Shown in pieces: positions 34,334 through 39,540 of a DNA stretch of 63,536 bases. The notes under the pieces are model-generated. The model saw nothing but the letters and a program-made list of their open reading frames with translations. It made no database searches and was not told where the DNA came from. The stretch's first letter is position 1. Every line of letters starts with the position of its first letter. Origin of the DNA: Candidatus Avoscillospira avistercoris. Its GTDB lineage: Bacteria; Bacillota; Clostridia; Oscillospirales; Oscillospiraceae. The stretch is from positions 1 through 63,536 of the forward strand of contig DVJJ01000051.1 in assembly GCA_018716875.1 (NCBI GenBank). The letters run 5' to 3'. The position numbers and the translations under genes are program-made.

Positions 34334-35719
34334 TCAGTAGCTTTTGGAGAAACCGGCCTGGGCCACCTGTACCATAATCGCGCATTCGATGCGCTTGCGG
34401 AACAGCTGACAGCCATATTCATAGATGCCCTTGATGCTGCCGGTGGCGTGGTAGGCGTTGGCCGCACAGCCGCCGGAGCAGTAGAGACGGGCCCAGCAGT
34501 CCTTGCAGTCGGGACGGGCGTAGGCGTTGCATAGCTTGAACTCATCCCGCAGCGCCGTGCTGGTGACGCCGTCCCAGACGTTGCCCATGCTGTAGGCCGG
34601 ATCGCCCACAAACTGATGGCAGGGGAACAGCTCACCCCAGGGGGTGACGGCCAGGTATTCGGTACCGCTGCCGCAGCCGGAAATCCGCTTGTAGATGCAG
34701 GGGCCGCCCTTGAGGTCAATCATGTAATGGTAGAAGGTGAAGCCGTTGCCGGCCTCATGGCGGCGGATCATCTCTGTTGCAAGAATCTCATATTGCTCAA
34801 ACAGCTTGGGCAGGTCTTCTTCCGTCAGGGCGTAGGGCTCGTCGGGGGCGGAGACCACCGGCTCCATGGACAGCTCCGTAAAACCCAGATCAGCCATGTG
34901 GAAAATGTCGTTGGTGAAATCCACATTGTCGTGGGTAAAGGTGCCGCGCATGTAGTAGCCCTTGCCGCCGCGGCTCTCCACCAGCTTTTTGAACTTGGGC
35001 AGGATGATGTCATAGCTGCCCTTGTCGTTGACAGTCCGGCGCAGACGGTCGTGGACTTCTTTCCGGCCATCCAGACTCAGGACCACATTGTGCATTTCCT
35101 TGTTGGCAAACTCGATGACATCGTCATCGATCAGCAGGCCGTTGGTGGTCAGGGTGAACCGGAAATTCTTGTTGTGGAGTTTCTCCTGCTCTCGGGCGTA
35201 GGCCACCACATCTTTGACCATCTGCCAGTTCATCAGTGGCTCGCCGCCAAAGAAATCCACCTCCAGATTCCGGCGGGTGCCGGAGTGGGCAATGAGGAAG
35301 TCGATGGCCTGTTTGCCCACCTCCAGGGACATGAGAGCCCGGTCGCCCTGGTATTTGCCCTGACTGGCAAAGCAGTAGTTGCAGGTCAGGTTGCAGGTGT
35401 GGGCCACATGGAGACACAGGGCTTTGATAACCGTATTGCGTTCCTTGAAATCAAAGGCCATGTCGGCGTACTGGTCCGGGGCGAAGAGCTTGCCGTTCTT
35501 TTTCAGCTCCTCAATGCTGTCCAGAACTTGACGCAGCTCCTCTTCGGTGACGTCGGGCTGATCGTGATACTTCTCCAGCATTTGCCGGATGATCTCCTCG
35601 GGAGCGGTGGTCTCATAGAGGGCGATAACGTCATAGGCCACCGGGTCCACCACATGGACTGAGCCGCTGTAGATGTCCAGCACGATGCAGTAGCCGTTGA
35701 GTTTGTACTGATGAATCAT
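34334..35719 (-). CDS. scfB: Radical SAM SCIFF (ranthipeptide) maturase
   Basis: CNLTCNYCFASQGKY radical SAM motif and C-terminal SPASM-like Cys cluster CNAYARPDCKDCWARLYCSGGCAANAYHATG; adjacent to six-Cys peptide. Confidence 0.94.
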   Translation of the reverse strand: MIHQYKLNGYCIVLDIYSGSVHVVDPVAYDVIALYETTAPEEIIRQMLEKYHDQPDVTEEELRQVLDSIEELKKNGKLFAPDQYADMAFDFKERNTVIKALCLHVAHTCNLTCNYCFASQGKYQGDRALMSLEVGKQAIDFLIAHSGTRRNLEVDFFGGEPLMNWQMVKDVVAYAREQEKLHNKNFRFTLTTNGLLIDDDVIEFANKEMHNVVLSLDGRKEVHDRLRRTVNDKGSYDIILPKFKKLVESRGGKGYYMRGTFTHDNVDFTNDIFHMADLGFTELSMEPVVSAPDEPYALTEEDLPKLFEQYEILATEMIRRHEAGNGFTFYHYMIDLKGGPCIYKRISGCGSGTEYLAVTPWGELFPCHQFVGDPAYSMGNVWDGVTSTALRDEFKLCNAYARPDCKDCWARLYCSGGCAANAYHATGSIKGIYEYGCQLFRKRIECAIMVQVAQAGFSKSY

Positions 35720-35790
35720 AAGGTTCCTCTTTCTGTTATGTGAAAATCCTAAACTTACCGATGTATTCGGCCCAAAGACATGAAAAATCG

Positions 35791-35816
35791 CCGCCGGCCG
35801 CGCTAGGCGCGGCGGG
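35791..35816 (-). terminator. GC-rich imperfect hairpin plus T-tract between precursor and maturase (possible leaky terminator)
   Basis: Minus strand CCCCGCCGCGCCTAGCGCGGCCGGCGGCGATTTTT. Confidence 0.55.
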
Positions 35817-35839
35817 GCAGCGACCCTTCCAAAATCAAA

Positions 35840-35992
35840 TTACTTGTTCTCGCTGCTCTTCTCGCAGGGCTGGTTGGCAACGCCGCAGGAAGTCTTGCAG
35901 GCAGACTGGCAGGAAGTCTGGCACTCGCCGCAACCGCCGTTGTGAGCGCTCTGGGCCAGGTCACGGGTCTCCAAGGTCTGAATCCGATTCAT
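35840..35992 (-). CDS. scfA: Six-cysteine SCIFF/ranthipeptide precursor (50 aa), absent from ORF track
   Basis: Translated by eye: MNRIQTLETRDLAQSAHNGGCGECQTSCQSACKTSCGVANQPCEKSSENK; six Cys; RBS AAAGGAGG upstream. Confidence 0.95.
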   Translation of the reverse strand: MNRIQTLETRDLAQSAHNGGCGECQTSCQSACKTSCGVANQPCEKSSENK

Positions 35993-36095
35993 GGTAATGG
36001 GCCTCCTTTTAATGAAAGATACAGTGACGGCAATGCCGCCCGGTAAACGATTCCATGGCGCGGCACAAAGGTGCGCGCCCGTTTCCCTTTTATCT

Positions 36096-36124
36096 ATTCA
36101 ATCATAAATCCGTCCGTCTGTCAA
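36096..36124 (-). promoter_or_regulatory. Candidate promoter for scfA-scfB (TTGACA, 17 nt, TTGAAT)
   Basis: Minus strand TTGACA at 36124-36119, TTGAAT at 36101-36096. Confidence 0.5.
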
Positions 36125-36150
36125 TTACAACCGTGTGGATTTGTGAAATT

Positions 36151-37584
36151 TTATCCTGTCGCCGCTGCCAGAACCCTGTGGGGTGCCAAACCGCTGTCGC
36201 TGTAAAGCTGCACGCCGCTGTCGGCAATGTCATGAAGAGCCTGTACAATATCCGCAGTCAGAACCTCACCGGGGACCACCAGAGGGATACCGGGCGGGTA
36301 CATCCAAAGACTTTCCGCCATGGTGCGTCCAATAGCCTCCGCCATGGGCAGAGGGACGGTGGGAAGCTGCCGGGCTTGGGCGATGGTATACCGGACCGGG
36401 GGCAAAGGAGGTGTTGGACGAATGCAGGGGACGCTGATGTTGTGACAAAGACCATCAAGCTCTAACAGAACGGCAGCAAAGCGTTCCAAGGTCTCCGCCG
36501 TGTCGCAACAGCTGGTCATAGCTAAAACGCCCTGGGGGGCGGCCATCTCCGGCTCAATGCCCCGCTGCCGCAGCAGGGCTGCCAGCTGGGGACCCGTCAG
36601 GTCGGTGCCGTGGGTACTGACAAACAGCTTCCCAGGGTCAAAGGCGAAGAAATCGGGATGGCGGCTGCAATGATCCGCGCCATGACAAAGAACCCGCAGA
36701 TGGTGCAGCGCTTCCAACCGCCGGTCCAGATGTTGCAGATTCCGGGCATAGTCGGCAAACAGTGCCGGGCCACGGTGCTCCAACAGCTTGAGGCAGCGGT
36801 GGATGGAACCCATCAGCAGATAGGAGGGGCTGCTGGTTTGGAAGACGGCCAGAAAGTGGGCCAGCCGTTGGGGGTCCACCAGATTGCCCTGTACATGGGC
36901 AAGGGCTGTTTGGGTCAAACTGGGCAGCGTCTTGTGAACACTCTGAATGACGAGATCCGCTCCAGCTGTCACAGCCCCGCTGGAAAAAGCCGGATGGAAA
37001 TAGAGATGGGCCCCGTGGGCCTCATCCACCAACAGGGGGATACCCCGCCGGTGACAGACGGCGGCAATGGCGGCAATGTCGCTGATAACGCCCTCGTAGG
37101 TGGGACTGGTGAGAACCACCAAACGGACATCCGGATGCTGTGCCAGAGCCGATTCCACCGCTTCGGGCGGCAGGGAAGCGGACACGGCAAAGGATGGGTC
37201 CACCGGCGGCGTCAGATAGAGCGGCTCCAGATGCAGCAATTCCACGGCGTGATAGACCGATTTGTGGCAGCCTCGAGCCATAAGAATCCGGCTGCCGAAA
37301 GGAGCTGCGGCGGCAATGGCCGCCAAAATGCCGCCGGAAGAGCCGTTGACCAGATAAAAGGCACGGGCGGAGCCGTACAACCGGGCGGCCAATTCCATGC
37401 CGTCTTTCAGAATCCCCTCGGCTTCGTGGAGATTGTCGAAGCCGTCGATTTCCGTAATATCCAGCTGCCAGGGCAGTTCCTCACCGCCCAAAGCGGTACG
37501 CTTGTGGCCGGGCATGTGCATGGGCAGAAAACCGGTGGCATCGTACTGAGCCAGCTGTTCCAACAGATCGTCGTAGCCTGCCAT
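36151..37584 (-). CDS. Orn/Lys/Arg decarboxylase-family PLP enzyme
   Basis: MPGHKR motif, FLVNGSSGGILAAI, PLP-lysine region ADLVIQSVHKTLPSLTQ. Confidence 0.92.
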   Translation of the reverse strand: MAGYDDLLEQLAQYDATGFLPMHMPGHKRTALGGEELPWQLDITEIDGFDNLHEAEGILKDGMELAARLYGSARAFYLVNGSSGGILAAIAAAAPFGSRILMARGCHKSVYHAVELLHLEPLYLTPPVDPSFAVSASLPPEAVESALAQHPDVRLVVLTSPTYEGVISDIAAIAAVCHRRGIPLLVDEAHGAHLYFHPAFSSGAVTAGADLVIQSVHKTLPSLTQTALAHVQGNLVDPQRLAHFLAVFQTSSPSYLLMGSIHRCLKLLEHRGPALFADYARNLQHLDRRLEALHHLRVLCHGADHCSRHPDFFAFDPGKLFVSTHGTDLTGPQLAALLRQRGIEPEMAAPQGVLAMTSCCDTAETLERFAAVLLELDGLCHNISVPCIRPTPPLPPVRYTIAQARQLPTVPLPMAEAIGRTMAESLWMYPPGIPLVVPGEVLTADIVQALHDIADSGVQLYSDSGLAPHRVLAAATG

Positions 37585-37586
37585 GG

Positions 37587-38039
37587 TTAGCCCTCATTGG
37601 AGAAAAGCATCTGCTCCACAATGGCGGCGGCATCACCAATGCACCGTTCACAGGGACGGCTTTCATAGTATTCTGCGGTCCGTTTGGCAGGGGTGGGGCA
37701 GTCGGGACCCTCCGATAAACCCAACAGGTCCCGGCAAAGAATGGTGCCGTGGATGGCGCGGAATTGCTCCGCAATTTCCTGCACCTGGGCATATTGGCGG
37801 GCTTTGGCCTCGTCGTCGGTGGGGGAACTGTAGCCCTCCCGCAGTCCTAAAATCAAAAAAGAGGCGCTGAGGGCGCCGCAGACCTCCCGCAGCCGGCCCA
37901 TACCACCGCCGAAGGACGAAGCCATCCGGGCGGAGTCCTCTTTTGTCAGTCCCAAATCCGGCGCAAAGGCCAGAAGTACCGATTGGGCGCAGTTGTAACC
38001 CTCCAGAAAATAGGCTTGTGCCTGTGTTGCGTGATCCAT
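37587..38039 (-). CDS. C-GCAxxG-C-C family protein
   Basis: EGYNCAQSVLLAFAPDLGL...SSFGGGMGRLREVCGALSA; Cys-rich C-terminus; ATG 38039. Confidence 0.85.
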   Translation of the reverse strand: MDHATQAQAYFLEGYNCAQSVLLAFAPDLGLTKEDSARMASSFGGGMGRLREVCGALSASFLILGLREGYSSPTDDEAKARQYAQVQEIAEQFRAIHGTILCRDLLGLSEGPDCPTPAKRTAEYYESRPCERCIGDAAAIVEQMLFSNEG

Positions 38040-38178
38040 GGGAGAACCGCTCCTTTCGTGCAAACAGATGGAATTAGGATACCGCCGGAATATCACCGTG
38101 TCAAGGTGGGCATGTCCATAAAATTTTGCGGGGATGGTGGCTTTTTTTCACGGAGAATGGTATACTATGGATGGAATT

Positions 38179-38265: not shown

Positions 38266-39540
38266 GTGGAACAAATGATGTATGACGGTTTTGTTCGCAT
38301 TCTGAAAAAAGAACTGGTTCCCGCATTGGGCTGTACGGAGCCCATCGCCCTGGCCTATGCCGCCGCCAAAGCGCGGCAGGTGTTGGGGGCGTTTCCGGAG
38401 CGGGTGGTCACCACCTGCAGCGGCAATATCATTAAAAATGTCAAGGGCGTCGTGGTGCCTGCCACCGGCGGTCTCCGGGGCATTGAAGCGGCCACGCTCA
38501 TCGGTACCGTCGGCGGCGATCCTGAGCGGAAACTGGAGGTGCTCACCGGTGTCACCGACGAGGACCGGGGCAGAGTCCGCCAACTGCTGGCAGAGAACCT
38601 CTGCACCGTCAAGCTGTCGGACAGCAGCGCCAAACTCCATATCATCGTGGAGATGGCGGTGGGAGACGATACGGCCCTGGTGGAGATTCTCCACAGTCAT
38701 ACCAATATTGTTCGGATTGAGAAAAATGGACAAACCCTGTTCCGCCAGAGCGGAGAGGAGGAGACACCGTCCGAGGAGGACCCGGACTACGCTTTGCTGG
38801 ACCTGGAGCATATTCTGGAGTTTGCCGAAACGGTGCAGATTGACGATGTCCGGGAGGTTCTGGACCGGCAGATTCAGTATAATTTGAAAATTGCCGAAGC
38901 CGGTCTGACCGGTACTTATGGTGGCAATGTGGGCAAAACGCTGCGGGAAGCCTACGGCGACAGCTTTGATGTTATGGCGCGTGCGCTGCCTGCCGCCGGG
39001 TCCGATGCCAGAATGAGCGGCTGTGAACTGCCGGTGGTCATCAACTGCGGCAGCGGCAACCAGGGCATGACGGCGTCGCTGCCGGTCATTGCCTGTGCCA
39101 AAGAGCTGGGCGTCAGTGACGAGAAACGGTACCGTGCTCTGTGTGTCTCCAACCTGACGGCGGTCTATCAGAAACGGGATATCGGACGGCTGTCGGCCTA
39201 TTGCGGCGCTGTCAGTGCCGCCGCTGGTGCCGGTGTGGGTATGATGTATCTGCGGGGCGGCAGTCTGGAGGATATGGCCAACGTGCTCACCTGTACCCTG
39301 GCCGATGTGGGCGGCATCCTCTGCGACGGCGCTAAATCCTCCTGTGCTGCCAAAATCGCCTCCTCTGTGGAAGCGGCGCTGCTGGCTATCCGTATGACGG
39401 AGAAGCGGCGGGGCTTCGGCAGCGGCGAGGGCTTTATCAAAGACACCATCGGTGAAACGGTGGCGGCCATCTCGGCCATTGCCCGGGAGGGTATGCAGGT
39501 CACCGATGAGGTCATTCTCGATGTGATGGTCAACCGCTGA
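38266..39540 (+). CDS. UPF0597/CyuA-like L-cysteine desulfidase or serine dehydratase-like protein
   Basis: LVPALGCTEPIALAYAAAKAR; TCSGNIIKNVKGVVVPATGGLRGIEAA; conserved Cys residues. Confidence 0.88.
   Translation: MEQMMYDGFVRILKKELVPALGCTEPIALAYAAAKARQVLGAFPERVVTTCSGNIIKNVKGVVVPATGGLRGIEAATLIGTVGGDPERKLEVLTGVTDEDRGRVRQLLAENLCTVKLSDSSAKLHIIVEMAVGDDTALVEILHSHTNIVRIEKNGQTLFRQSGEEETPSEEDPDYALLDLEHILEFAETVQIDDVREVLDRQIQYNLKIAEAGLTGTYGGNVGKTLREAYGDSFDVMARALPAAGSDARMSGCELPVVINCGSGNQGMTASLPVIACAKELGVSDEKRYRALCVSNLTAVYQKRDIGRLSAYCGAVSAAAGAGVGMMYLRGGSLEDMANVLTCTLADVGGILCDGAKSSCAAKIASSVEAALLAIRMTEKRRGFGSGEGFIKDTIGETVAAISAIAREGMQVTDEVILDVMVNR

What the first reader, a model, noticed from the sequence alone, without database searches (positions are those of the whole stretch)
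35840..35992. SCIFF ranthipeptide precursor missed by the ORF track, next to its radical SAM maturase
The 50-aa MNRIQTLETRDLAQSAHNGGCGECQTSCQSACKTSCGVANQPCEKSSENK has exactly six Cys and a strong AAAGGAGG RBS. It sits immediately upstream of a SPASM-type radical SAM protein (34334-35719). This matches the 'six cysteines in forty-five' Clostridia-wide system, in which the maturase installs Cys thioether crosslinks. The family is known, but its function is largely unresolved.
Basis: partly seen in the sequence, partly recalled or inferred. Interest (0 to 1): 0.6.

Follow-up and report, generated by a model that had tools for sequence, protein, structure and literature searches.

The report
SCIFF thioether peptide and its maturase
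This is an ordinary, intact member of a very common Clostridia gene pair, a tiny cysteine-rich peptide and the enzyme that ties it into a ring, but it belongs to a sub-lineage in which one of the two disputed attachment sites is naturally missing, so it helps decide where the ring closes.

Summary
The 50-codon ORF at 35992-35840(-) has a strong ribosome site and is a SCIFF ranthipeptide precursor, well above the curated cut-offs of TIGR03973 and PF13165. The next gene (35719-34334) is its SCIFF maturase (TIGR03974, 781 bits; cut-off 425). The system is known and common: 322 of 391 sampled genomes of the class carry SCIFF.

(1) Residue 37, the crosslink acceptor first reported for Tte1186a/CteA, is Gly here. 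Among 322 SCIFF genomes it is Thr in 249, Gly in 69, Ser in 3 and Ala in 1, while Thr34 never varies. Thr/Gly separates on the maturase tree with one change.
(2) A hairpin with a T-run lies between precursor and maturase here and in most relatives, suggesting excess precursor over enzyme.
(3) Gly37 loci usually sit beside an Orn/Lys/Arg-decarboxylase-like gene on the same strand, as here; Thr37 loci sit in the yajC-TIGR04086-secDF region instead.
(4) Three genomes carry a third type that lacks Cys32.

Crosslinking and function are inferred, not shown.

The parts
35840..35992 (-). SCIFF ranthipeptide precursor, 50 aa; leader about residues 1-20 (MNRIQTLETRDLAQSAHNGG), core from Cys21; Cys32, Thr34, Gly37
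   Evidence: TIGR03973 80.9 bits, PF13165 79.4 bits; sequence
36002..36010 (-). Shine-Dalgarno AAAAGGAGG of the precursor
   Evidence: sequence
36101..36130 (-). promoter-like site TTGTAA-18-TATGAT upstream of the precursor (consensus match only)
   Evidence: weak, 9 of 12
35782..35829 (-). GC-rich hairpin with T-run between precursor and maturase: partial terminator / mRNA 3' end (inferred role)
   Evidence: z -3.3 for the gap; same kind of hairpin in 125 of 144 relatives' gaps against 75 of 720 shuffles at -10 kcal/mol
34334..35719 (-). SCIFF maturase, radical SAM/SPASM, 461 aa; PqqD/RRE-like N-terminus, CX3CX2C at C109-C113-C116, SPASM Cys 349-437
   Evidence: TIGR03974 781 bits; PF04055, weak PqqD and SPASM; 5wgg; invariant Cys
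36151..37584 (-). Orn/Lys/Arg-decarboxylase-like PLP enzyme, 477 aa, conserved neighbour of Gly37-type SCIFF; possible partner, role unknown
   Evidence: PF01276 176.9 bits; 2x3l; neighbourhood counts

Best explanation
A known two-gene RiPP system. The 50-residue SCIFF precursor is made in excess because most transcripts stop at the hairpin after it and only some read on into the maturase (inferred). The maturase's N-terminal PqqD-like domain holds the leader (by analogy with CteB), its radical SAM cluster generates the 5'-deoxyadenosyl radical, and it joins the sulphur of Cys32 to the gamma carbon of Thr34 (inferred from the published CteA/CteB co-expression result). Residue 37 is Gly, so the alternative Cys32-Thr37 bond cannot form. 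The product is most likely a conserved signal, as suggested for solventogenic clostridia, rather than an antibiotic. The adjacent decarboxylase-like gene is a plausible functional neighbour in this sub-lineage, with unknown role.
For: Family scores. Maturase homologous over its full length to 5wgg. Near-identical core CGECQTSCQSACKTSC across 141 distinct precursors, with Thr34 invariant and residue 37 only Gly (91) or Thr (50). Class-wide 249 Thr, 69 Gly, 3 Ser, 1 Ala in 322 genomes. Thr/Gly changes once on the maturase tree, support 100. Literature conflict Cys32-Thr37 against Cys32-Thr34 described in PMC8326336 and PMC8172795. Hairpin enrichment.
Against: No mass or expression data, so the crosslink, its position and the excess of precursor are inferred. 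The residues around Thr34 are just as invariant, so Thr34 conservation alone does not prove it is the acceptor. The patchy presence in the genus (3 of 7 genomes) shows that the system is dispensable. The PqqD and SPASM Pfam hits are just under their cut-offs.
Confidence: 0.85

Rival explanations
1. The crosslink is different in the Gly37 lineage: the maturase joins another Cys/acceptor pair (for example Cys28-Thr26, Cys36-Thr34 or an alpha-thioether to Gly37), so Gly37 SCIFFs are chemically a separate product.
For: Thr26 is invariant in Gly37 types (91 of 91) but not in Thr37 types (40 of 50). Three maturase residues are diagnostic of the two types: 108 (next to the first cluster Cys) T/D, 330 Y/F, 332 Y/F. 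A third type lacks Cys32 altogether and still has a maturase.
Against: Cys32 and Thr34 are kept in all Gly37 types seen, and the maturase is otherwise a normal TIGR03974 member. A glycine offers no beta or gamma carbon.
Confidence: 0.2
2. The peptide is a metal-binding or redox peptide whose other Cys act as free thiols or disulfides, with the crosslink only a lock on the fold.
For: Only one of the six Cys is reported crosslinked (PMC8326336), yet the other five are invariant.
Against: No direct evidence for metal binding; the Cys-rich redox gene near it in this window is not a conserved neighbour.
Confidence: 0.15
3. The decarboxylase-like gene next to SCIFF is a bystander kept by slow rearrangement.
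For: A promoter-like site lies in the gap before SCIFF, and 24 of 72 Gly37 rows lack the gene nearby, some perhaps because contigs end.
Against: It is on the same strand in 52 of 52 cases, upstream in some and downstream in others. The window's subfamily occurs on either side, in G284 and G442, two deeply separate subfamilies are used, and in the genus the orthologue and SCIFF are present together (3 of 3) or absent together (4 of 4).
Confidence: 0.4

Closest known systems
CteA/CteB (thermocellin) of Clostridium thermocellum
   Same: Precursor numbering matches (fourth Cys = Cys32, Thr34); maturase is a full-length homologue of 5wgg
   Different: Residue 37 is Gly, not Thr; maturase positions 108/330/332 are T/Y/Y, not D/F/F as in Thr37 types; gene neighbourhood differs from the Sec-linked Thr37 type
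Tte1186a/Tte1186 of Caldanaerobacter subterraneus
   Same: SCIFF family and maturase family
   Different: The reported in-vitro Cys32-Thr37 bond cannot form here
Freyrasin PapA/PapB
   Same: Ranthipeptide radical SAM/SPASM maturase superfamily; PapB model matches at 275 bits
   Different: Below the PapB cut-off (340); no Cys-X3-Asp repeats in this precursor
QhpD (quinohemoprotein amine dehydrogenase maturation)
   Same: Homologous radical SAM/SPASM thioether-forming enzyme, 277 bits
   Different: Below its cut-off (453)

Membership tests
SCIFF (TIGR03973 / PF13165) | Score above curated cut-off | tested here: met
   80.9 vs 50 and 79.4 vs 27 bits
SCIFF (TIGR03973 / PF13165) | Six Cys within about 45 residues | tested here: met
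   C21, C24, C28, C32, C36, C43
SCIFF (TIGR03973 / PF13165) | Partner maturase TIGR03974 nearby | tested here: met
   781 vs 425 bits, 120 nt downstream
SCIFF maturase (TIGR03974) | Radical SAM CX3CX2C and seven-Cys SPASM | tested here: met
   C109, C113, C116; C349, C367, C405, C408, C414, C418, C437 conserved in over 97% of 147 rows
SCIFF maturase (TIGR03974) | PqqD/RRE leader-binding domain | tested here: inconclusive
   PqqD 22.8 bits, cut-off 23.4; full-length homology to 5wgg covers it
Ranthipeptide | Non-alpha-carbon thioether in the mature peptide | not testable with these tools
   needs co-expression and MS/NMR
Tte1186a-type Cys32-Thr37 product | Thr at position 37 as acceptor | tested here: not met
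   Gly37; Gly in 69 of 322 SCIFF genomes
CteA-type Cys32-Thr34 product | Cys32 and Thr34 present | tested here: met
   the bond itself was not tested

The most novel reading that the evidence does not exclude
SCIFF splits into chemically and functionally distinct types. A Thr37 type sits in the Sec region. A Gly37 type (this window) can only form the Cys32-Thr34 bond or a new one, and is tied to an Orn/Lys/Arg-decarboxylase-like PLP enzyme with which the peptide works. A rare Ser32/Ser37 type has lost the known donor cysteine and must be crosslinked elsewhere.
Probability: 0.3. Interest if true: 0.6.

Novelty: new member of a known kind. Interest (0 to 1): 0.35.

Why it matters
SCIFF is in most Clostridia sampled, but its product and role are still argued over. 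Natural variants at the disputed residue, and the lineage without Cys32, turn the conflict between the two published crosslink assignments into a direct test by co-expressing three gene pairs. The decarboxylase linkage gives a concrete partner to test for a function.

Tried and rejected
A second SCIFF copy in this genome: none. C39 peptidase/exporter in the assembly: none, but the assembly is 83% complete, so this is not proof of absence. A known Rfam element between the genes: none. A structured leader before the precursor: the fold is no better than shuffles. A terminator after the maturase: a pattern match only, not supported by folding. The AraC-type gene downstream as dedicated regulator: not a conserved neighbour. 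The primary papers on CteA, Hudson 2019, Chen 2020 and Haft 2011 are not held, so those results are cited through reviews. A literature search for the decarboxylase or Sec linkage found nothing relevant in the open-access library, which does not show that it is unreported.

Full report
OBSERVATION. The ORF at 35992-35840 on the minus strand encodes MNRIQTLETRDLAQSAHNGGCGECQTSCQSACKTSCGVANQPCEKSSENK, starts with ATG and is preceded by AAAAGGAGG nine bases upstream. It scores 80.9 bits against TIGR03973 (cut-off 50) and 79.4 against PF13165 (cut-off 27). The gene 120 nt downstream, 35719-34334, scores 781 bits against TIGR03974, the SCIFF maturase (cut-off 425), and aligns over its full length with the chain of PDB 5wgg/5why (that this entry is CteB is my own knowledge).

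DISTRIBUTION. In a sample of 391 genomes of the class, 322 have a SCIFF match. Among 60 relatives, 39 have a maturase over the cut-off. The nearest named relatives by maturase identity are Anaerofilum (85%) and Fournierella (78%). Within the genus only 3 of 7 genomes carry it. The four without it are 80-90% complete, so real loss or gain is likely.

RESIDUE 37. Reviews describe two conflicting assignments for the SCIFF bond: Cys32-Thr37 from in-vitro work on Tte1186a and CteA, and Cys32-Thr34 through the gamma carbon from co-expression (PMC8326336; PMC8172795). The window precursor has the same numbering (fourth Cys is Cys32), with Thr34 and Gly37. In 141 distinct precursors residue 37 is Gly in 91 and Thr in 50, and residues 27-36 do not vary. 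Class-wide, two DNA patterns that include codons for Ala-Cys-Lys-Thr-Ser-Cys followed by Gly or Thr match 69 and 249 genomes. I picked out by eye the four SCIFF genomes with neither pattern; they have Ser37 (three) or Ala37 (one). The sum is 322, and all four keep Lys-Thr34-Ser-Cys. On a maturase tree of 147 rows Thr/Gly needs a single change, branch support 100 (the tree is a quick one and the Gly side is over-sampled with near relatives of the window). Glycine has no beta or gamma carbon, so a ranthipeptide bond at 37 is impossible in this lineage. This favours Thr34 as the general acceptor but does not prove it, because the neighbouring residues are equally invariant.

MATURASE RESIDUES. 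Three positions separate the two types: 108 (the residue before the first cluster Cys) T against D, 330 Y against F, 332 Y against F. In the three Ser37-type maturases, position 108 is D, D and G, 330 is Y, F and Y, and 332 is Y in all. These are candidates for substrate positioning; their place in the structure was not examined.

HAIRPIN. The 120-nt gap folds with a 14-pair GC-rich outer stem at 35829-35782, with a T-run in its 3' arm (z -3.3). With a stricter test, 125 of 144 distinct gaps from relatives hold a single hairpin of -10 kcal/mol or better ending at a T-run, against 75 of 720 dinucleotide shuffles. The sequences differ widely, so what is conserved is the presence of a hairpin, not its sequence. 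The only promoter-like match in the gap overlaps the maturase start codon. The likely role is partial termination giving more precursor than enzyme; this is inference.

NEIGHBOURHOOD. In 28 Thr37 loci the pair lies with YajC, the TIGR04086 membrane protein or SecD/SecF within five genes in every case by my reading of the printed map (within four genes: SecDF 21, TIGR04086 20, YajC 17). In 76 Gly37 loci including the window none of these was found within four genes, but 51 have an Orn/Lys/Arg-decarboxylase-like gene there. With one row per distinct maturase, 48 of 72 Gly37 and 0 of 21 Thr37 rows have it within -3 to +2, and all 52 copies are on the SCIFF strand. The upstream and downstream copies form two deeply separate subfamilies. 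Yet the window's subfamily occurs upstream in G284 and downstream in G442. In two genomes with the other subfamily (G378, G136) the copy beside SCIFF is the only homologue found in the assembly. In the window's genus the orthologue and SCIFF are present together in 3 genomes and absent together in 4; single-block loss would also explain this. I therefore treat functional linkage as plausible, not shown.

OTHER TYPES. Three genomes (G284, G442, G410) have Cys32 replaced by Ser, residue 37 Ser and an extra C-terminal Cys, with a maturase next to the precursor. On the tree they sit as a weakly supported group (71) between the Gly and Thr sides. Several genomes encode two SCIFF cores in one ORF (L082, L095; L188, L198, L200).

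MECHANISM AND FUNCTION. Shown: both genes intact, catalytic cysteines conserved, family identity. Inferred: leader binding, radical formation, Cys32-Thr34 bond, excess precursor. For function, disruption of a SCIFF locus in C. beijerinckii lowered sporulation genes and raised agr (Chen et al. 2020 as reported in PMC8102284). The near-identity of the core across a whole class fits a conserved signal or cellular role better than an antibiotic; a review makes the same point from its wide spread (PMC8326336).

VERDICT. An ordinary new member of a known system. The added value is that its lineage lacks one of two disputed acceptors and has a recurrent decarboxylase-like neighbour.

Noticed in passing
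L226, L227, L228 (same genes in L258, L259, L260): SCIFF precursors with Cys32 replaced by Ser (SASKTSCS), Ser at 37 and an additional C-terminal Cys; maturase present next door. The published donor cysteine is missing.
   Followed up: partly
L082, L095, L188, L198, L200: Two full SCIFF leader-core units fused in one ORF of about 90 aa
   Followed up: no
L187 / L261: SCIFF precursor with Ala37 and no maturase found within about 7 kb: possible orphan
   Followed up: no
37587-38096 and 38266-39540: A C-GCAxxG-C-C putative redox protein and an SDH_alpha-family (serine dehydratase alpha chain) gene lie just beyond the decarboxylase-like gene; not conserved SCIFF neighbours
   Followed up: partly
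L143-L182 (Thr37 loci): SCIFF lies between yajC/TIGR04086 and secD/secF across many families, an old association with the Sec region that the Gly37 lineage lacks
   Followed up: partly
genomes G001, G002, G004, G005 (same genus): SCIFF, its maturase and the orthologue of the decarboxylase-like gene are absent together in four of seven genomes of the genus
   Followed up: partly
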